From contig JAIMKT010000027.1 of assembly GCA_020692245.1 (NCBI GenBank), positions 10,288 to 47,175 of the forward strand: a DNA stretch of 36,888 bases, given 5' to 3'. The stretch comes from Microcoleus sp. GA_180221_E-2-1-MAG-45_12 (lineage in GTDB: Bacteria; Cyanobacteriota; Cyanobacteriia; Cyanobacteriales; JAAUUE01). Positions 6,947-22,453 of this stretch are shown piece by piece (position 1 is the first letter of the stretch; every line of letters begins with the position of its first letter). The position numbers and the translations under genes were made by a program. The notes below the pieces were generated by a model. That model ran no database searches. It worked only from the letters and a program-made list of their open reading frames with translations, and was not told the origin of the DNA.

Positions 6947-9900
6947 TTAAAGGGCGAAGCGAGTCACGGCTAGGAACCCGGCTAATGCGGAAGCCCCTAG
7001 GGAGAACAAGGCGGAGCTAAATACCCACCATGCAGCCCCAGAAGCAGCTTTACGAGTTTCCCGGACTTGTTTCTGAGCCTCGTATTTGACAGCATCGAGT
7101 CGTCTTTGGGTTTCCTGTTGCACTCGTTCCACCTGATGGAGGACACTATCTCGTGTGGATTCTACTTGACCAATAATCCGGTTCGCATCTGCCTCGGAAA
7201 TATCTTCCCGGGAACTGAGAAGAGCAACCAAAGTATTTCGATCGAAATGAGTGAGTCGATCGCGGAGAGCCTCTATCCCTAACTGCGGATCATTAAACAG
7301 TTGGCTAAAGTCCTGCTTGATGCCGTCATAGTTGAGTTCGGGACGTTCTAAGCCATTCAGGTAGTTGCGGATGCTATCAAAAACTTTATCGATGGCAGCT
7401 TGTACAGCCTGTTGCACCTTCTGGAGTTGATCAGTGACCGCCTTAAAGTTTGCTTCCACTTGATCAGCGATCCGATTAGCTTCTTCCTCGGTCATGTCCT
7501 TGCGTTGAGCCAACAGAGCCACAAAGGTTGCTCGATCGAACTGAGCCGCCCGATCGCCGAGACTACTTAATCCCGCCATTGGATCCTGTAACAGAAGTTG
7601 TAGATCTCGCTTAATACCTTCAGGATTGAGTTCCTCTTTGTTAGTATTTTGCAGATAGTTTTCCAAGTTAGTTTCAAAGTCAACGGCTTGTTTTTGGACT
7701 CGGCTGGCTAAACGGCGGGGAGCTTTGATTACCTTCCGAATGGCAGATTGAATTTGATCGATCGCCCGATTAACTTGCTCCTCACTGAGGTCTTCCCGTT
7801 GACTCAAGAGTTTCACCAAGGTTTCTCGATCGACATGGGACAAGCGCTCCTGCAAGGCAGAAGTTCCGGCTTTCGGGTCATGGAACAAAGTCGAGAGATC
7901 CTGTTGAATACCTTCAGGATTTAGCTCTTCTAAGTTAGTTTTCCGCAGATAATCCGCTAGAGCTTGAGTAGTTTGATCGTACTGATCTTTAGCTTTACCT
8001 GCCAATTTTTTGGGAGCTTGCAAGATGCTATCCCGGACTGATTCCACCTGATCTAGCACCTGATTTACTTGTTCTTCACTGAGATCTTGACGTTGGCTCA
8101 ATAACTGCACCAAAGTATCTCGATCGAACTGCGAGAGCCGACCTCTAAGAGCATTTAACCCTGCTTCTGGATCATCAAAGAGGGTTTTCAAGTCCCGTTG
8201 GATATCTTCAGGATTAAGCTCATCCTTATGGGTATTGCGTAGATAATCAGCTACTTTGTTTCGGAGTTCTTGGGCTTGTCCTTGAACACGTTCTTGCAAT
8301 CCCTGAGCCTGAGATAGAACCTGATTACGGGTATCTTCTAGTCGATCGAGAATCTGACTCCTTTCTTCCGAGCTGATATCTTCCCGTTGGCTCAAAATTT
8401 GCTCCAAAGCGTTCCGGTCAAACTGATTCACTCGATCGCCCAAAGCATCTAAACCTGCTTCTGGGTCTGCCAAGAGGAGATTAAACTCCTGCTCGATCGC
8501 CTCTGGATTTAACTCAGATTTGTCCGTAGAGCGTAAATATTCTTCGACTCGATGACGCAATCCTTGAGATTTTCCTTCCGCTTCTGCCGTTTGCACTGTG
8601 GTAAACACCTCAGTCCGGATCTCTGTCAAATAACCAGCGACATCTTGGGCTTTTTCTGGCGTGAAATCATCCCTGAGGCTCAAGGCTTCCACAAAGTAAT
8701 CGTGATCGATCGACTCCAATTCTTGGCGGATAGCCCTTGGATCTGCTGCCTCATCATAAATCACATCCCGAAATTCCTGCTTGATGGTTTCCCGGTTTAG
8801 TTTCCACGGCGGTGATAACAACAGGTAATTTTCTAGGTCGGCTTGAACAACGCTAAAACGCTTGGAGGGCTGATTAGCTTTGCCGTTAGCCTTGCCGTTA
8901 GAGTGACTATTAGAATTACCATTAGATGAGTTATCTGGCTGGAGAAGATTGCTCCCAAGGGTGCGGAGTTGCCCCCCAATTTTTTCTACATCCACATCCG
9001 AAAGATCAACATTTTGTAAGACCCGGCTGAGGAGGGCAGTAGTCCCCAATTGCAGAGCCTGACTGGTCAAGCTGCCTTGCGGTTTTAGCTGGGAAGAAGT
9101 TGTTTTGACTAATTCACTCAACTGCTCGCTGAGTTTACCTGATTTTAATTCCTCAGGAGCCAACCCCTGCAATTGTTTAATTAATGCTTGGGGATCAATT
9201 TGTTCTTTCGCCCCCACCACCTGTTTCCAAGCCGCTTCTAGTTGATCAGTGATCCGCTCAACATCTTTCTTGGAGAGGTCAGTGCGGCTACTCACCAATT
9301 TAGTTAAGGTATCTCGATTCACATTTTTGAGCAAATCACTACTGGCGATCGATTCCAAATCTGCATCTTTCAACAACTTGGCAAACTGACTTCCCAATTG
9401 ATCTAGATTCAAATTCGGTAGCTGGACTTTATCGAGGGAACTTTGCAAGGTTTTTTGGATTGTATCGGGGTCAAAACCAGAGGTCAACTCCCGACGCACG
9501 GCGGCTGTCACCTCTTCGGCGGTGGAAACCACTTGGTTCTTGGCAATATTTGCCCCCAACATGGCAGTTCCCGTTCCTAACAAACCTTGAATACCCGTGG
9601 TAGCGGCACTAATAATCGACCCCAGCAAGGAACCCAAGGTGGTAGAGCCAAACCAAGTCAGCAAGGTGAAGAATATCGCCCAAATACTCACCCCTGTTAT
9701 GGCTCCCAACTCTGGGCTAGCCACTAAACTCAGCTTCACAGCCAGAAAACAGGCAGCAAATAAAGCAATACTCACACTTACTAATAATCCCAAACCAACT
9801 TTGGTATCAAGGCCCACACTGTCATCTGTGTTGTCTGATTTTTCCGGTACGGTAGAATTACTAGAGCTATCGGGAGCAGCAATCACAGCGATCGCTAGGT

Positions 9901-10141
9901 TTGTAAACAATAATTGAAAGGCAAAAGCCATCACCACACCCACTACTAGGGCTAGTAGGAAATTAGGGGTTGAGAATAAAACAATATTTTCGGTAATTGG
10001 TAATTGGGCGACCATTTGGTTAGGCAATAACGTTGCTGCCCAACTACTTGAAGTGCCAAAAACAAAAGCGATGGTAGTTACGATCGTTACTGAGAAGATC
10101 ATTGTCATAAAAAAGTTACGAACCTGTCGAAGTGAAATCAT
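6947..10141 (-). CDS. Large membrane protein with tandem helical repeats
   Basis: 1064 residues; ATG preceded by a strong GGAGG site. The first 200 residues hold about four hydrophobic segments (around residues 10-35, 53-88, 115-140 and 150-175). The middle is hydrophilic and made of repeats about 97 residues apart. Each has 'ELNPEGI..DL..LF.DP.AGL.AL..R', then 'FDR.TLV.LLSQR.DLSEE..NRI.DQVE'. Five clear copies start near residues 539, 632, 732, 830 and 927; two more diverged copies lie N-terminal (about 210-310 and 440-520). One hydrophobic helix ends the protein. An Asn/Ser/Lys linker near residue 415 separates the halves. Related proteins occur in cyanobacteria, but I know of no firm function. 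It starts 21 bp after the 69-residue gene, which suggests co-transcription. A membrane-anchored scaffold or mechanosensing role is only a guess. Confidence 0.85.
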   Translation of the reverse strand: MISLRQVRNFFMTMIFSVTIVTTIAFVFGTSSSWAATLLPNQMVAQLPITENIVLFSTPNFLLALVVGVVMAFAFQLLFTNLAIAVIAAPDSSSNSTVPEKSDNTDDSVGLDTKVGLGLLVSVSIALFAACFLAVKLSLVASPELGAITGVSIWAIFFTLLTWFGSTTLGSLLGSIISAATTGIQGLLGTGTAMLGANIAKNQVVSTAEEVTAAVRRELTSGFDPDTIQKTLQSSLDKVQLPNLNLDQLGSQFAKLLKDADLESIASSDLLKNVNRDTLTKLVSSRTDLSKKDVERITDQLEAAWKQVVGAKEQIDPQALIKQLQGLAPEELKSGKLSEQLSELVKTTSSQLKPQGSLTSQALQLGTTALLSRVLQNVDLSDVDVEKIGGQLRTLGSNLLQPDNSSNGNSNSHSNGKANGKANQPSKRFSVVQADLENYLLLSPPWKLNRETIKQEFRDVIYDEAADPRAIRQELESIDHDYFVEALSLRDDFTPEKAQDVAGYLTEIRTEVFTTVQTAEAEGKSQGLRHRVEEYLRSTDKSELNPEAIEQEFNLLLADPEAGLDALGDRVNQFDRNALEQILSQREDISSEERSQILDRLEDTRNQVLSQAQGLQERVQGQAQELRNKVADYLRNTHKDELNPEDIQRDLKTLFDDPEAGLNALRGRLSQFDRDTLVQLLSQRQDLSEEQVNQVLDQVESVRDSILQAPKKLAGKAKDQYDQTTQALADYLRKTNLEELNPEGIQQDLSTLFHDPKAGTSALQERLSHVDRETLVKLLSQREDLSEEQVNRAIDQIQSAIRKVIKAPRRLASRVQKQAVDFETNLENYLQNTNKEELNPEGIKRDLQLLLQDPMAGLSSLGDRAAQFDRATFVALLAQRKDMTEEEANRIADQVEANFKAVTDQLQKVQQAVQAAIDKVFDSIRNYLNGLERPELNYDGIKQDFSQLFNDPQLGIEALRDRLTHFDRNTLVALLSSREDISEADANRIIGQVESTRDSVLHQVERVQQETQRRLDAVKYEAQKQVRETRKAASGAAWWVFSSALFSLGASALAGFLAVTRFAL

Positions 10142-15711: not shown

Positions 15712-17316
15712 ATGCCCCCCCTGATCGAATCCCAAGTGCATACTTCCCTCCGGGCTTACCTGCGGCAACAGGGCGATTATAGCTGGCCTCATCATTTGAC
15801 TATGGCTCGGTTAGTAGCTAGGGCTTTGCGGTTGGGTCGATCGGCTCTCATGCAAACGAGTACTTCTCCCCCGGTGTATGCCCTGAGCTATCTAACTCCG
15901 GCGCTTCTCTGGCAGGGGGCTGTGGTGTTGGTGATTCCTCCCTTGTGGCAAGAGCCTTGGGTCGAAAAGTTAATTCCGCAATTACAAGCAGCCTTGGGAA
16001 CTAATCGAGAGGTGGTGGTGAGCGATCGATTCCTCTCTGAGGATTTTGCTGGAGTCTTAATCACGAGTCCTCAAAACTGGTTGAGCGATCGCCTGAGGAT
16101 AGTTACCAATATAATTACCAATCCAGAAGCTAATCAAGAAGCTAAATTTCCACCGGGAATTCCCACTTTGATCGATGGGGCAGATGATTTAGAGCCTTGG
16201 GCAAGGGAGTGCCTAACTCAAACTATGCTGCCAGGAGATTGGGATCAGTTAATTGCCCACTATCCCCAGCAAAAAGAAATAATTCGAGATGTCAAAATCA
16301 AGTTAACTAAAAGTTTTTTCGATCGTCCTCCTAATCCCTACGGCTGTTGTTTATTAGACACCTCAGAACAAGAACTTATTCATAATCTGGGGAGTAAACT
16401 TGTAGATAAATTTGCAGATCAAATCCTAGATAAACCTGTAGATAAACTTACAAATAAACCTGAGTTCTTAGCCCACAATCTAGGAAAATTTTCTCAACAA
16501 TTAGGACAACCATCAGGGCAAATTCTCTGGGCGGGGGTCGATCGACAGCATGGTTATTTTACTTTGCACAGCACTCCCGCAGAAGTAGCCACTAGTTTGA
16601 GCAAGGTTTGGCAACAGCAACCCGTAGTTTTCATGGGCAGGGCAATGGATTTGGAAGTAGAAGCCACAGCCTATCGCCAGAACGTGGGCTTAGGGGGTTT
16701 AACTTGTTTGAAATTTCCCCCAGACCTGCAAACAGAATTGATTCAACTCTACCTGCCCGATCGCCTGCCTTTGCCCAATACACCCCAGTTTCAAGCCGCC
16801 CTCGAACAGCAGGTCATGGATTTATTAACCATTAGTCGCAGTGATAAGGGGTTCATTGTGATTTTGATAGAAGATAATCCCCTAAAACAGCAGATGGCGG
16901 CGGTGATGGCGGGGGAATTTGGCTCTAGAGTCCAGATGGAAGTGATCACCCCAAACCCAGCCCCGATTTTAGTGACAGGTTGGCAGTTTTGGCGAGAATG
17001 TCAGCATCAGTTCCCTTCCCCAAAGCTGCTCATTATTGCCACCTTGCCGATCCCTTCCCTCGAAAATCCCCTTGTGGCTGGTCAAGTAGCCTACTACAAA
17101 CAACAGCGCCTAGACTGGTTCCGGCTCTATCTTCTACCCACGGCTCTACGAGAACTCCAAAGGGCGATCGCCCCCGCCCGTCGTCATCAGGGAGTTGTGG
17201 CTATGCTTGATAGTCGAGTTAACCACCGCAGCTATGGACAGCAGGTACTCACTGCCCTCAGTCCCTTTGCCAAAATCAACTACCTCGATCCCCGTCTTTG
17301 GGAGTTGTTGTCTTAA
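15712..17316 (+). CDS. Degenerate DinG/XPD-like helicase of cyanobacteria
   Basis: 534 residues; ATG without a Shine-Dalgarno sequence. The C-terminal part follows the DinG helicase C-domain layout: 'LLIIATLPIPSLENPLVAGQ', then 'LDWFRLYLLPTALRELQRAI', and 'GVVAMLDSRVNHRSYG'. The N-terminal part has 'YSWPHHLTMARLVARALRLG' and then 'RSALMQTSTSPP', where a helicase would have its Walker A lysine; none is present. The DEAH-box position appears as 'TLIDGADDLE', and the arginine-finger motif VI (usually QGxGRxxR) is 'QRAIAPARR'. ATP hydrolysis therefore looks unlikely or altered. A 60-bp in-frame repeat adds about 20 residues near position 230. The family assignment rests on pattern memory only. 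Confidence 0.65.
   Translation: MPPLIESQVHTSLRAYLRQQGDYSWPHHLTMARLVARALRLGRSALMQTSTSPPVYALSYLTPALLWQGAVVLVIPPLWQEPWVEKLIPQLQAALGTNREVVVSDRFLSEDFAGVLITSPQNWLSDRLRIVTNIITNPEANQEAKFPPGIPTLIDGADDLEPWARECLTQTMLPGDWDQLIAHYPQQKEIIRDVKIKLTKSFFDRPPNPYGCCLLDTSEQELIHNLGSKLVDKFADQILDKPVDKLTNKPEFLAHNLGKFSQQLGQPSGQILWAGVDRQHGYFTLHSTPAEVATSLSKVWQQQPVVFMGRAMDLEVEATAYRQNVGLGGLTCLKFPPDLQTELIQLYLPDRLPLPNTPQFQAALEQQVMDLLTISRSDKGFIVILIEDNPLKQQMAAVMAGEFGSRVQMEVITPNPAPILVTGWQFWRECQHQFPSPKLLIIATLPIPSLENPLVAGQVAYYKQQRLDWFRLYLLPTALRELQRAIAPARRHQGVVAMLDSRVNHRSYGQQVLTALSPFAKINYLDPRLWELLS
16399..16458 (+). repeat. 12-bp tandem repeat (5 units) inside the helicase-like gene
   Basis: Units at 16399, 16411, 16423, 16435 and 16447 read CTTGTAGATAAA, TTTGCAGATCAA, ATCCTAGATAAA, CCTGTAGATAAA and CTTACAAATAAA. 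They encode LVDK, FADQ, ILDK, PVDK and LTNK. Three of the five carry the TAGATAAA core also present in the trpF repeat, on the opposite strand relative to the gene. Confidence 0.85.
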
Positions 17317-17348
17317 GAATTACAATCTCAAAACAGTGTGAAATCAAC

Positions 17349-17376
17349 AGAATGTGAACGGGAAGTCCCACATTCT
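17349..17376 (+). other. Inverted repeat (8-bp stem) after the helicase-like gene
   Basis: AGAATGTG (17349-17356) and CACATTCT (17369-17376) are perfect complements around a 12-base loop. No T-run follows, so it is a weak terminator candidate. It may be the left-end hairpin of the TnpB element or a relic of another element's right end. Confidence 0.5.
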
Positions 17377-17492
17377 ATCCGTTGCAGATGGGTGGCGGGA
17401 TGAAAGTGAACCAAAAGTAAACTGAGCAATAGCAAATCAATAGAAGTTGTATATGTTATAATTATTTTATCAGTATCCTATAATCTTGATAA

Positions 17493-18686
17493 ATGTATAA
17501 AGCGTACAAATACAGAATCTATCCCACAAATGAGCAAGAAGTCTTGTTTGCCAAATCTTTTGGTTGTGCTAGATGGTTCTGGAACTACGCTCTAAACCTA
17601 TGCCAAGAAACCTATAAAGATACTGGCAAGGGACTATCTAGGGGATACATACAAGGTTTGCTACCAGCCCTCAAAAAAGAATACGAATGGCTAAAGGAAC
17701 CATATTCCCAATGCCTGCAAGTAGTAGCTCTAAACCTCTCTACTGCTTACAAAAACTTTTTTGATAAACGGGCAATGTTGCCAAAATTCAAATCAAAGCA
17801 TGGTCGGCAGTCAGTTAGCTATCCCCAAAACGTCAAGTTTGACGGTGACAAAATTAATCTACCTAAAATTGGCTTAGTCCACTGCCAACGTCACCGGGAC
17901 TTTGAGGGCGACATTAAAACTGTCACTGTATCCCGAAACCCTGATGGAAAGCATTTTGTTTCTGTCTTGGTTGACGATGGCAAAGAAAATCCCAGATTGG
18001 TTCCAGTAGATAAAGCTATTGGGATTGATGTAGGGTTAACTCATTTTGCAATTACCAGCGATGGGTCTAAGTTTGGCAACCCTAGGCATTTTGTCAAGCG
18101 TCAACGCAATCTAAAGCGCAAACAGCAAAAACTTTCTCGCAAAAAGAAAGGTAGTCAAAACCGCAAAAAAGCAAGATTAGTAGTGGCAAAAGTCCACTCC
18201 AAAATTGCTAGATGTCGTGAAGATTTTTTGCACAAGCTATCCCGCAAGATAGTTAACGAAAACCAAGTTATTGCAGTAGAAAATCTGAATATCAAAGGAA
18301 TGGTCAGGAATCATAATCTAGCCAAAGCGATTAGTGATGTTGGCTGGGGAATGTTCTGTACAATGCTTAAGTACAAAGCTGAAAGAGAAGGGAAACAATA
18401 CATCGAGGTTGATCGGTGGTTCCCTAGCTCCAAGGCTTGCCATGTATGCCTAAATCGAGTTGACAGCCTCAGTCTTGATATCAGGGCATGGACTTGTAAG
18501 CATTGCGGTACTCACCATGATCGTGATGTAAATGCGGCGATCAATATTAGAAATGAAGCCTTGCGGATTCTGGCATTAGGAACTAGTGCTTCTGTCTGTG
18601 GAGGGGATGTAAGTCGCTCTGGTAAAACTTCGGTTTTGTTGGACGCTATTCCCGTTGAATCAGGAAGCCCACGCTCTATCGCCTAG
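17493..18686 (+). CDS. tnpB: TnpB RNA-guided nuclease (IS200/IS605 OrfB), apparently intact
   Basis: 397 residues, ATG; no clear ribosome site. It begins 'MYKAYKYRIYPTNEQ', the classic OrfB N-terminus with a helix-turn-helix-like region. The RuvC catalytic triad is complete: Asp179 in 'GIDVGLTHFA', Glu263 in 'VIAVENLNIKGM', and Asp345 in 'HHDRDVNAAINI'. A zinc-ribbon lies between the last two (CHVC and CKHC pairs). A basic 'RNLKRKQQKLSRKKKG' bridge region is present. TnpB proteins cut double-stranded DNA next to a short TAM, guided by an RNA from the element's right end, and promote retention of the element. The last part of the gene overlaps the expected guide-RNA scaffold. TATAAT-like boxes occur at about 17456 and 17477 upstream. 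Confidence 0.93.
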   Translation: MYKAYKYRIYPTNEQEVLFAKSFGCARWFWNYALNLCQETYKDTGKGLSRGYIQGLLPALKKEYEWLKEPYSQCLQVVALNLSTAYKNFFDKRAMLPKFKSKHGRQSVSYPQNVKFDGDKINLPKIGLVHCQRHRDFEGDIKTVTVSRNPDGKHFVSVLVDDGKENPRLVPVDKAIGIDVGLTHFAITSDGSKFGNPRHFVKRQRNLKRKQQKLSRKKKGSQNRKKARLVVAKVHSKIARCREDFLHKLSRKIVNENQVIAVENLNIKGMVRNHNLAKAISDVGWGMFCTMLKYKAEREGKQYIEVDRWFPSSKACHVCLNRVDSLSLDIRAWTCKHCGTHHDRDVNAAINIRNEALRILALGTSASVCGGDVSRSGKTSVLLDAIPVESGSPRSIA

Positions 18687-18728
18687 CAGTGAGCGATGGG
18701 TAGTTCACGCAATATAGCCTGTGGTGGT
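18560..18728 (+). ncRNA. Putative omegaRNA (TnpB guide RNA), extent approximate
   Basis: Known TnpB guide RNAs come from the 3' end of tnpB through the right end, with the guide being the flanking DNA. Two hairpins are visible here: AAAAC-TTCG-GTTTT (18624-18637), a UUCG tetraloop, and the terminal ATCGC/GCGAT stem (18678-18697). If the element ends at 18708, the guide would start at 18709 (GCAATATAGCCTGTGG) and match the 3' end of the isoaspartyl peptidase gene. The 5' end is a guess. Confidence 0.45.
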
Positions 18729-19634
18729 TTCTAGAGGTAAATCTAAAGTATCACCGCTTTTTTCGCCGTCGTGATAGGCAGCAAATAGAACTTGGCTAGT
18801 TTTGCCCCAACCAATTCCCCCCTGAGCATCGAGGGCGATCGCCCCAAAATCCCGCTCATTATTTTTTGCTTCCGTAAAGGATTTCTCTAAGGCAGACTTT
18901 AAGGAAAAGCCGTCACTAACTCGGATCACAATTTTCGCTGCTAGACACTCTTCGAGAATATCTTCCCCAATGCCTGTACAGCTAACCGCCGCTAAAGAGT
19001 TGGCATAGTTCCCCGCCGGAGTTGCCGAATCACTCACCCGTCCGATCCGCTCAAAGCCCTTGCCCCCGGTGGAAGTTCCCACCGCAATCCGACCTTCTCG
19101 ATCGATGACTACCACGCCGATCGTTCCCCGTCCCGCATCTGGGTTATTCGCCACAACCCCCGCCATGGCTGACCTAAAGCCTTGATCTCGTTCAGCCATC
19201 CATTCATGCAAGCGAGTAGTAGTTAGGGGATTGTAGAGAGGAACCTGCAACTCCCTCGCCAGTTCTACTGCCCCATAATCAGAGAGGATGCGATCGCTGT
19301 GGTCTTGCAAAAACTGCGCTAAATCAATGGGATGTTGTACCCGTGAGACATTAATCACCCCACTAAAACGCTGCTTCACGCCGTCCATCAACGCTGCACT
19401 CATGCGAATTTGCCCATCGGCTTGCAATACCGAACCAGTCCCCGCATTAAACCTCGGTTCATCTTCTAGGTGATGACAACCCAACACCACCGCCTCGATC
19501 GCCGACATTCCCAACAACAATTGCTCAGAAACTATATGAACAATTTTGCCCAGAGCCTCCCGCACCGGAACTAAGCCACCCTTATCTTGGACAGAGTTAC
19601 CCGCCCCCCCGTGAATAATAACTTTTGGTTGCAT
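18705..19634 (-). CDS. iaaA: Isoaspartyl peptidase / plant-type L-asparaginase
   Basis: 309 residues; ATG start. An Ntn-hydrolase precursor that self-cleaves before a threonine; the nucleophile is probably Thr171 in 'AGRGTIGVVVID', followed by 'GTSTGGKGFERIGRVSD', the oxyanion and substrate region. The N-terminus 'KVIIHGGAGN' and 'FNAGTGSVL' fit the alpha subunit. The enzyme cleaves beta-Asp-X dipeptides, including beta-Asp-Arg from cyanophycin made by the cyanophycinase at 5957-6829, and has asparaginase activity. The TGA stop (18705-18707) lies inside the inferred right end of the TnpB element, so the element appears to supply the stop codon and part of the last sense codon. The protein still looks full length, ending in 'LETTTGYIA'. 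Confidence 0.93.
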   Translation of the reverse strand: MQPKVIIHGGAGNSVQDKGGLVPVREALGKIVHIVSEQLLLGMSAIEAVVLGCHHLEDEPRFNAGTGSVLQADGQIRMSAALMDGVKQRFSGVINVSRVQHPIDLAQFLQDHSDRILSDYGAVELARELQVPLYNPLTTTRLHEWMAERDQGFRSAMAGVVANNPDAGRGTIGVVVIDREGRIAVGTSTGGKGFERIGRVSDSATPAGNYANSLAAVSCTGIGEDILEECLAAKIVIRVSDGFSLKSALEKSFTEAKNNERDFGAIALDAQGGIGWGKTSQVLFAAYHDGEKSGDTLDLPLETTTGYIA

Positions 19635-21396: not shown

Positions 21397-21882
21397 ATGA
21401 GTATCGTCACGAAGTCGATCGTGAACGCTGATGCTGAAGCCCGTTACCTCAGCCCCGGCGAACTAGACCGCATCAAAGGCTTTGTTTCTTCTGGAGAACA
21501 ACGCTTAAGAATTGCCCAAGTTATTGCTGATTCCCGCGAACGTCTTGTTAAGCAAGCTGGTAATCAGTTGTTCCAAAAACGTCCTGACGTTGTTTCCCCC
21601 GGTGGTAATGCCTACGGTGAAGAAATGACTGCGACCTGCCTCCGGGATCTAGACTACTACCTCCGTCTAGTTACCTACGGGATTGTTGCTGGTGATGTCA
21701 CCCCGATCGAAGAAATCGGTCTAGTTGGAGTCCGGGAAATGTACAAGTCCCTCGGTACCCCGATCGAAGGTGTGGCAGAAGGTGTCCGGGCGCTGAAGAA
21801 CGCTGCTGCCTCCCTGTTGTCTGGTGAAGATGCGGCTGAAGCTGGCTCCTACTTTGATTATGTGATCGGCGGTCTCCAGTAA
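21397..21882 (+). CDS. apcA: Allophycocyanin alpha subunit
   Basis: 161 residues, the exact family length; ATG with a GGAGGA site. It begins '[20 protein letters not shown]'. The phycocyanobilin is attached at Cys81 within '[16 protein letters not shown]'. The protein forms the (alpha-beta)3 trimers of the phycobilisome core that pass excitation to the photosystems. It is followed by apcB after 85 bp and by apcC, in the conserved apcABC order. The core-membrane linker gene apcE, often upstream of apcA, is not here; rps1A occupies that side in the opposite direction. Confidence 0.99.
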
Positions 21883-21967: not shown

Positions 21968-22453
21968 ATGCAAGACGCAATTACCGCAGTTATCAATTCT
22001 TCTGATGTCCAAGGCAAATACCTAGACACCGCAGCTCTCGAAAAGCTCAAAGGCTACTTCAAAACTGGCGAACTTCGGGTTCGTGCTGCTTCCACCATCA
22101 GCGCTAATGCCGCTACGATCGTCAAAGAAGCTGTAGCTAAATCCCTCTTGTACTCTGATGTCACCCGTCCCGGCGGCAACATGTACACCACCCGTCGCTA
22201 TGCTGCTTGCATTCGTGATTTGGACTACTACCTCCGTTACTCTACCTACGCTATGCTAGCTGGCGATCCTTCCATCCTTGATGAGCGGGTTCTCAATGGT
22301 CTAAAAGAAACCTACAACTCCTTGGGCGTGCCTATTACTTCTACTGTTCAAGCTATTCAAGCTATGAAGGAAGTAACTGCTAGTCTAGTTGGTGCTGATG
22401 CTGGTAAGGAAATGGGCGTGTACTTCGATTACATCTCCTCTGGCTTGAGCTAA
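21968..22453 (+). CDS. apcB: Allophycocyanin beta subunit
   Basis: 161 residues; ATG. It begins '[20 protein letters not shown]'. The chromophore cysteine is Cys81 in '[16 protein letters not shown]', and the 'PGGNMY' segment carries the asparagine that is normally gamma-N-methylated. It pairs with ApcA in the phycobilisome core. A 230-bp gap with a long-range inverted repeat separates it from apcC. Confidence 0.99.

What the first reader, a model, noticed from the sequence alone, without database searches (positions are those of the whole stretch)
17493..18728. TnpB element whose right end supplies the stop codon of iaaA and whose guide would match iaaA
The TGA of iaaA (18705-18707) lies within GTAGTTCAC, the inferred element end at 18708. 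The next bases, from 18709, are iaaA 3' coding sequence and would be the omegaRNA guide. TnpB has its full D-E-D triad, and UUCG and terminal hairpins are visible. The nuclease would then target the empty iaaA end and maintain the element there, while the gene keeps a working stop.
Basis: partly seen in the sequence, partly recalled or inferred. Interest (0 to 1): 0.55.

Follow-up and report, generated by a model that had tools for sequence, protein, structure and literature searches.

The report
TnpB transposon swapping a stop codon
A small mobile DNA element sits exactly on the overlapping stop codons of two cyanobacterial genes, its right end supplies a new stop for one of them, and the same kind of harmless stop-codon landing recurs in related elements in other cyanobacteria.

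Summary
A congeneric genome (Coleofasciculaceae cyanobacterium SM2_1_6) has the locus without the element: the helicase and iaaA genes end tail to tail with overlapping TAA stops, TCTTAA|GCAATATAGCC. In the window 1392 nt lie between TCTTAA and GCAATATAGCC. The element's last bases, GTAGTTCAC (18700-18708), are its conserved right end. They turn iaaA's end from GCT TAA into GCG TGA, so the protein is unchanged; the helicase keeps its TAA. The predicted guide from 18709 matches the empty site for 26 nt, beside CTTAA, a variant of the usual TTTAA motif.

The element is an IS200/IS605-type TnpB element without tnpA. Beyond the finding, the stop swap recurs. Site motif and right end both carry an antisense stop one base from the cut (T-TAA, G-TGA). 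In 10 of 102 distinct right-end junctions an antisense frame of at least 100 codons ends in that TGA, including argJ, ntcA, rsfS and msrP. In argJ, 25 of 28 element-free loci read ACT TAA; the filled one reads ACG TGA. Selection against gene disruption explains most of this. I found no report of it in the library searched. Nuclease activity is untested; 31 extra bases at the left end are unexplained.

The parts
15712..17316 (+). helicase-like gene (DinG/YoaA-type C-terminal part); its stop TAA 17314-17316 lies inside the insertion-site motif
   Evidence: Pfam Helicase_C_2 9.3e-8; NCBIfam YoaA and DinG below cut-off; stop retained at the junction
17312..17316 (+). CTTAA, the insertion-site / target-adjacent motif (TAM) next to the empty-site junction
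   Evidence: empty site in G001; copies have TTTAA 62, CTTAA 4 (window included), GTTAA 4, ATTAA 2 of 72 (NTTAAC required by the search except for the window)
17317..17347 (+). 31 extra bases between the empty-site junction and the left end recognised by homology; absent from G001; origin unexplained
   Evidence: the 31-mer has no second copy in the 10 genomes searched at up to 3 mismatches
17348..17402 (+). left end, starting C as in relatives, with subterminal hairpin sequence
   Evidence: compared by eye with L015-L026 left ends; hairpin not folded here
17493..18686 (+). tnpB, 397 aa, D179/E263/D345 and CxxC pairs at 316 and 335
18597..18708 (+). omegaRNA (reRNA) scaffold: three predicted helices; GAA of GGAAGC predicted to pair with TTC of the right end
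   Evidence: 27-sequence alignment; 11 of 22 pairs with two-sided changes, 95.4% of cells paired, 0 of 500 shuffles as high on these measures
18700..18708 (+). right end GTAGTTCAC
   Evidence: end of all 26 BLAST-found loci that hold a right end; empty site
18705..18707 (-). TGA stop of iaaA, supplied by the element; the third base of the last codon (18708) is also the element's
18705..19634 (-). iaaA (asparaginase/isoaspartyl peptidase-type), protein end TGYIA unchanged against G001
18709..18724 (+). predicted 16-nt guide, antisense to the 3' coding end of iaaA
   Evidence: identical to the empty site for 26 nt; guide length taken from ISDra2 (PMC8612924, passages)

Best explanation
This is an IS200/IS605-family TnpB element of the tnpB-only (IS1341) kind that landed on the overlapping stop codons of two convergent genes. 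Such elements insert just 3' of a TTTAA-like motif. The motif stays on the left, so the sense gene keeps its TAA. The antisense gene loses its native stop to the far side of the element, but the right end (...TTCAC) resembles the motif (...TTTAA) and carries TGA antisense in the same register. The gene is therefore closed at the same residue (GCT TAA becomes GCG TGA). The right-end transcript then reads a guide from the 3' coding end of iaaA. By analogy with studied TnpBs it would cut any allele that keeps the motif plus this sequence, so the element is restored or copied, while its own copy is spared because TTCAC replaces the motif. Shown: right boundary, stop swap against G001, unchanged protein end, guide match, catalytic residues, covarying scaffold, recurrence in other genes. 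Inferred: transcription, cleavage, maintenance, and mobilisation in trans by a TnpA encoded elsewhere.
For: Empty site in G001 (identified with SM2_1_6). Right end present in all 26 loci that hold one. A mid-gene insertion in L030 gives a frame open for 571 codons through the junction only if TTTAA is kept and the element starts at C, which fixes the cut. Recurrence: 10 of 102 distinct right-end junctions have an antisense frame of at least 100 codons ending in the right-end TGA, against 6 and 1 in the other two phases; 5, 1 and 9 of 99 after a stricter filter. Background: 20 of 1480 TTTAA sites in 400 kb of one genome (p 8.7e-6), or 41 of 2240 if CTTAA is allowed (p 9.1e-5). Gene identity: ArgJ 1-405/405, NtcA 1-193/193, RsfS 4-99/99, MsrP 3-312/320 of the profiles. 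argJ: 25 of 28 element-free loci end TAA after AC|T, 3 end TGA, and the filled allele reads AC|G TGA. Scaffold covariation. The genome has two Y1 transposase matches, both on other contigs.
Against: The empty-site comparison rests on one congeneric MAG (87% complete). The window insert carries 31 bases that other copies lack at their left ends. The motif here is CTTAA, not TTTAA. The window's scaffold alone folds no better than shuffled sequence (z 0.35). No expression or cleavage data exist. ntcA in the congener G070 has TAG and no motif there, so that case lacks a clean empty allele. Only five of the nine other phase-2 frames tested matched an NCBIfam family; L031's frame is 91 codons from its first possible start.
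Confidence: 0.85

Rival explanations
1. The 31 bases 17317-17347 are native left flank. The element inserted at ATCAA (17343-17347), and G001 lost 31 bases, for instance by aberrant excision cut at the upstream CTTAA. iaaA would then have ended GCT TGA before insertion, so the stop is still re-supplied but by TGA replacing TGA.
For: Left ends of other copies align by eye to C17348, not 17317. Joining the flanks this way gives GCT TGA, a stop at the same residue.
Against: It needs a separate deletion whose right edge falls exactly on the insertion point. No copy with a TCAAC left junction was seen: 72 of 102 junctions matched NTTAAC, which the search demanded, and the printed stretches of the other 30 showed none, though many of those had no recognisable left end at all.
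Confidence: 0.3
2. The TnpB or its RNA is no longer active. The element is a passive relic held at a neutral site, and no cleavage maintains it.
For: Single copy in this genome at DNA level (one weak 158-nt second match). No tnpA in the element. Motif is CTTAA. The single RNA is no more stable than shuffles.
Against: Open 397-aa frame with D-E-D and zinc-ribbon cysteines. Right end and scaffold conserved. The guide still matches the congener's allele.
Confidence: 0.35
3. The stop-codon position is not special. Insertions scatter over TTTAA sites, and only harmless ones survive; stop codons are simply one kind of harmless site because the motif contains TAA.
For: Inside-gene insertions are depleted (16 of 65 against 1130 of 1480 background sites); stop sites rise together with intergenic ones (39 of 65 against 324 of 1480).
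Against: Among non-disruptive sites, stops are 10 of 49 against 26 of 350 in the background (Fisher p 0.007). The background is one genome with crude ORF calls, so the excess is weak. This rival does not contradict the stop swap; it explains its frequency.
Confidence: 0.7
4. Chance or misreading: TGA belongs to native iaaA sequence.
For: None found.
Against: G001 has TAA and no GTAGTTCAC there.
Confidence: 0.02

Closest known systems
IS200/IS605 family, IS1341-type (tnpB-only) elements; ISAam1 TnpB
   Same: TnpB of the same family; TTTAA motif like that reported for ISAam1 (given as TTYAA and as TTTAA in PMC12477157, passages seen); no target duplication; guide read from the right flank
   Different: cyanobacterial element sitting on two stop codons; 31 extra left bases. 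No direct sequence comparison with ISAam1 was made
ISDra2 TnpB of Deinococcus radiodurans
   Same: closest natural solved structure by sequence (8bf8, E 1.1e-73; a designed nuclease, 9yyg, scores higher); right-end RNA with about 16 nt of flank as guide and a proposed donor-joint cleavage model (PMC8612924, passages)
   Different: motif TTGAT, whose reverse complement holds no stop in the relevant register
IS608 of Helicobacter pylori
   Same: cleavage sites TTAC (left) and TCAA (right) (PMC5934647, passages) also carry an antisense stop one base from the cut (G-TAA, T-TGA), so the same stop register would follow; this deduction is mine
   Different: has its own tnpA; no stop-codon survey of IS608 was made here
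IStrons (group I intron plus IS)
   Same: another way to make an insertion harmless to the host gene (PMC4227781, passages)
   Different: IStrons splice out of the transcript; here the gene is simply closed by the element's own end

Membership tests
IS200/IS605 (IS1341-type) TnpB element | TnpB with RuvC D-E-D triad and zinc ribbon | tested here: met
IS200/IS605 (IS1341-type) TnpB element | insertion 3' of a short motif without target-site duplication | tested here: met
   empty-site comparison; motif across copies; left boundary uncertain by 31 nt
IS200/IS605 (IS1341-type) TnpB element | subterminal hairpins at both ends | tested here: inconclusive
   right-end helix supported by covariation; left end only compared by eye
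IS200/IS605 (IS1341-type) TnpB element | right-end RNA with the flank as guide | tested here: inconclusive
   covarying scaffold and matching flank; no RNA data
IS200/IS605 (IS1341-type) TnpB element | no tnpA in the element (tnpB-only) | tested here: met
   two Y1_Tnp matches in the genome, on contigs C72 and C48, not C31
IS200/IS605 (IS1341-type) TnpB element | RNA-guided cleavage of the empty site | not testable with these tools
   needs biochemistry
IStron / splicing element | group I intron in the element | tested here: not met
   no Rfam match in the window at gathering thresholds

The most novel reading that the evidence does not exclude
Elements of this group are built for stop codons. 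The target motif (T-TAA antisense) and the right end (G-TGA antisense) share the stop register, so landing on a gene's last codon costs the host nothing. The guide is then copied from conserved 3' coding sequence, so the nuclease can home into the same gene in other species, much as integrases use tRNA gene ends. For argJ, of 28 element-free congener loci, 21 match the 16-nt guide with at most one mismatch, 15 have TTTAA or CTTAA beside it, and 10 have both (counted from the rows).
Probability: 0.2. Interest if true: 0.75.

Novelty: new member of a known kind. Interest (0 to 1): 0.5.

Why it matters
It shows with empty alleles how a TnpB transposon can occupy the ends of conserved genes without changing their products, and why its guide then points at conserved coding sequence. 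Because this group and IS608 have cleavage sites with the same antisense-stop register, it suggests a simple rule linking transposase cleavage sites, host tolerance and TnpB homing that can be tested across public genomes.

Tried and rejected
Native-stop reading: contradicted by G001. TTTAAC as the motif: rejected, since only the cut after TTTAA leaves the L030 host frame open for 571 codons. In the same call, L037 gave a longer fused frame with a cut one base earlier; looked at again, its left frame is an inositol-monophosphatase-like protein (name recalled, not searched) ending in the motif's TAA and its right frame is a different protein, so I kept it as a sense-stop case. Outgroup check of the intergenic region: none of 28 outgroup iaaA loci and 5 had the helicase or S1 neighbour in the stretch held (about 1.5 kb or 4 kb of flank at most), so polarity rests on G001. 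The outgroup proteins mostly end within a few residues of IaaA's end by eye, a few run longer. Stop position as a test between the 31-nt scenarios: fails, because both give a stop at the same residue. Origin of the 31 bases: no other copy in 10 genomes. A first count of non-genic background sites (last line) treated antisense stops wrongly and was replaced. Between 102 and 99 junctions, one spurious right end (L161 plus strand, which is one of the six phase-0 cases) was dropped because it lacks GTAGTTCAC, and two failed the filter; I take these to be L078 and L088, which lie at contig edges, and L078 is a phase-2 case. From 41 distinct right-end regions I left 14 out of the alignment by eye: the spurious one, eight with other or degenerate upstream sequence (L084, L085, L086, L092, L099, L123, L125, L126) and five with the core but extra inserts or a different layout (L030, L151, L154, L168, L173); the covariation result applies to the 27 kept. 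Rfam: nothing. Literature: searches (listings) and passages in PMC12477157, PMC3119063, PMC7290912, PMC4227781, PMC2806898, PMC8612924, PMC5934647 and PMC11870625 gave no report of stop codons supplied by IS200/IS605 ends; PMC6006769 held none of the terms sought. Meers 2023 is not held, so absence from print is not established.

Full report
Setting. The window lies in a 4.2 Mb cyanobacterial genome in 132 contigs. The only other held genome of its genus and family is G001. Its contig of 10,690 nt with a 96% identical iaaA agrees with a named record of the same length and identity, Coleofasciculaceae cyanobacterium SM2_1_6, so I take the two to be the same.

Check of the observation. iaaA ends in TGA at 18705-18707 within GTAGTTCAC, 18700-18708. 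In G001 the 3' ends of the helicase gene and iaaA adjoin: TCTTAA|GCAATATAGCC. In the window TCTTAA is followed by 1392 nt (17317-18708) and then GCAATATAGCC. In G001 the two genes' TAA stops overlap. In the window the helicase keeps TAA, and iaaA's last codon and stop change from GCT TAA to GCG TGA, both changed parts coming from the element. The IaaA protein ends TGYIA in both.

Element boundaries. A search of 388 genomes of the order found matches in 288 (its list of places is capped). Of the 30 loci it delivered, 26 hold a right end and all 26 read GTAGTTCAC there, with unrelated flanks from the next base on. On the left, 72 of 102 junctions had a recognisable left end: TTTAA 62, CTTAA 4 (window included), GTTAA 4, ATTAA 2 (the search required NTTAAC for all but the window, so other motifs would be missed). 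In L030 the element interrupts a gene, and only the cut TTTAA|C leaves a frame open for 571 codons. By homology the window's left end starts at C17348, but the empty site puts it at 17317. The 31 bases between are absent from G001 and have no second copy in 10 genomes searched. Either the element arrived with them or they are old flank lost in G001. Both give a stop at the same residue of iaaA, so I leave this open.

Protein and RNA. TnpB has D179, E263, D345 and two CxxC motifs, matches NCBIfam IS200_TnpB above its cut-off and aligns with ISDra2 TnpB. An alignment of 27 right-end regions, chosen by eye from 41 distinct ones, gives three helices. 11 of 22 pairs change on both sides and 95.4% of cells are paired, with no shuffle of 500 as high and slid versions at 35-53%; the number of further pair types is not unusual (94 of 500 shuffles as high). 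The pairs between GAA and TTC in the outer helix never vary and so prove nothing by covariation. The single window sequence is not unusually stable.

Guide. The 26 bases from 18709 equal the empty site, next to CTTAA; the filled site is preceded by TTCAC. In a search of G000, G001 and G002 with up to 3 mismatches, TTAA plus 16 nt of guide occurs exactly only in G001, and with 2 mismatches at the filled junction itself.

Recurrence. I read the right flanks antisense into 102 distinct right ends, found in loci L014-L043 and L078-L187 after removing near-identical flanks. Open frames of at least 100 codons occur in 6, 1 and 10 junctions for phases 0, 1 and 2. Phase 2 is the one closed by the right-end TGA. 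With a stricter right-end filter the counts are 5, 1 and 9 of 99. In phase 2 reading stops at the codon after the junction codon (92) or at the junction codon (7) in all 99; the other phases run on for medians of 17 and 14 codons. The ten are iaaA (window) and frames in L016, L031, L040, L078, L094, L108, L129, L147 and L160. NCBIfam names RsfS, MsrP, NtcA and ArgJ above cut-off and a PEP-CTERM domain in L160; L016, L031, L078 and L147 have no match. argJ is the best control: in 28 loci from 27 congener genomes without the element at this place, 25 end TAA and 3 TGA directly after the same coding sequence, while the filled allele ends in the element's TGA with ACT changed to ACG, both threonine. 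ntcA is a weaker case: the one congener allele seen ends TAG without the motif.

How unusual. In 400 kb of G087, 20 of 1480 TTTAA sites lie at such an antisense stop, so 9 of 99 is a 6.7-fold excess (p 8.7e-6; with CTTAA allowed 41 of 2240, p 9.1e-5; without the window 8 of 98, p 5.9e-5). With left and right ends both known, 65 insertions divide into 39 intergenic, 16 inside an ORF, 7 at a sense stop and 3 at an antisense stop; the window fits both stop classes and is counted as sense. The background is 324, 1130, 13 and 13 of 1480. Most of the excess is therefore explained by loss of gene-disrupting insertions. A residual excess of stops over intergenic sites (p 0.007) rests on one background genome, simple ORF calls and a sample rich in G070, G087 and G108, and should be treated as a lead.

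Mechanism. The register follows from the two cleavage sites: ...TTAA| on the left and ...TCAC| on the right, whose complements are T-TAA and G-TGA from the cut. In IS608 the sites are TTAC and TCAA (PMC5934647, passages), giving G-TAA and T-TGA, the same arrangement; ISDra2's TTGAT does not give it. That such sites preserve antisense stops is my deduction. The maintenance role of TnpB is taken from PMC8612924 and PMC11870625 (passages).

Verdict. The element is an ordinary kind; the stop swap is real, recurs, and I found no report of it in the library searched.

Noticed in passing
L094 and L106 (G108), L107 (G087): Short relatives (286-309 nt measured from motif to right end) with the same left motif and right end but no room for tnpB; probably non-autonomous derivatives. 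All three also sit on stop codons.
   Followed up: partly
L092, L123, L125, L126 (G070): Right ends of the family with unrelated sequence in place of the tnpB-proximal RNA scaffold (by eye).
   Followed up: no
G070 (28 matches) and G087 (19 matches): Large expansions of the same right end in one genus, a good natural system for empty/filled comparisons.
   Followed up: partly
G000, nine further TnpB-like matches: The window genome holds nine other TnpB relatives at 30-44% protein identity, several partial.
   Followed up: no
window 21397-21882 and 21968-22453: Two adjacent phycobilisome subunit genes of 161 aa (Pfam PF00502), an ordinary cyanobacterial pair.
   Followed up: no
window 6947-10141: 1064-aa minus-strand ORF with only a marginal internal match to a bacterial DNA-binding (HU-type) domain.
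   Followed up: no
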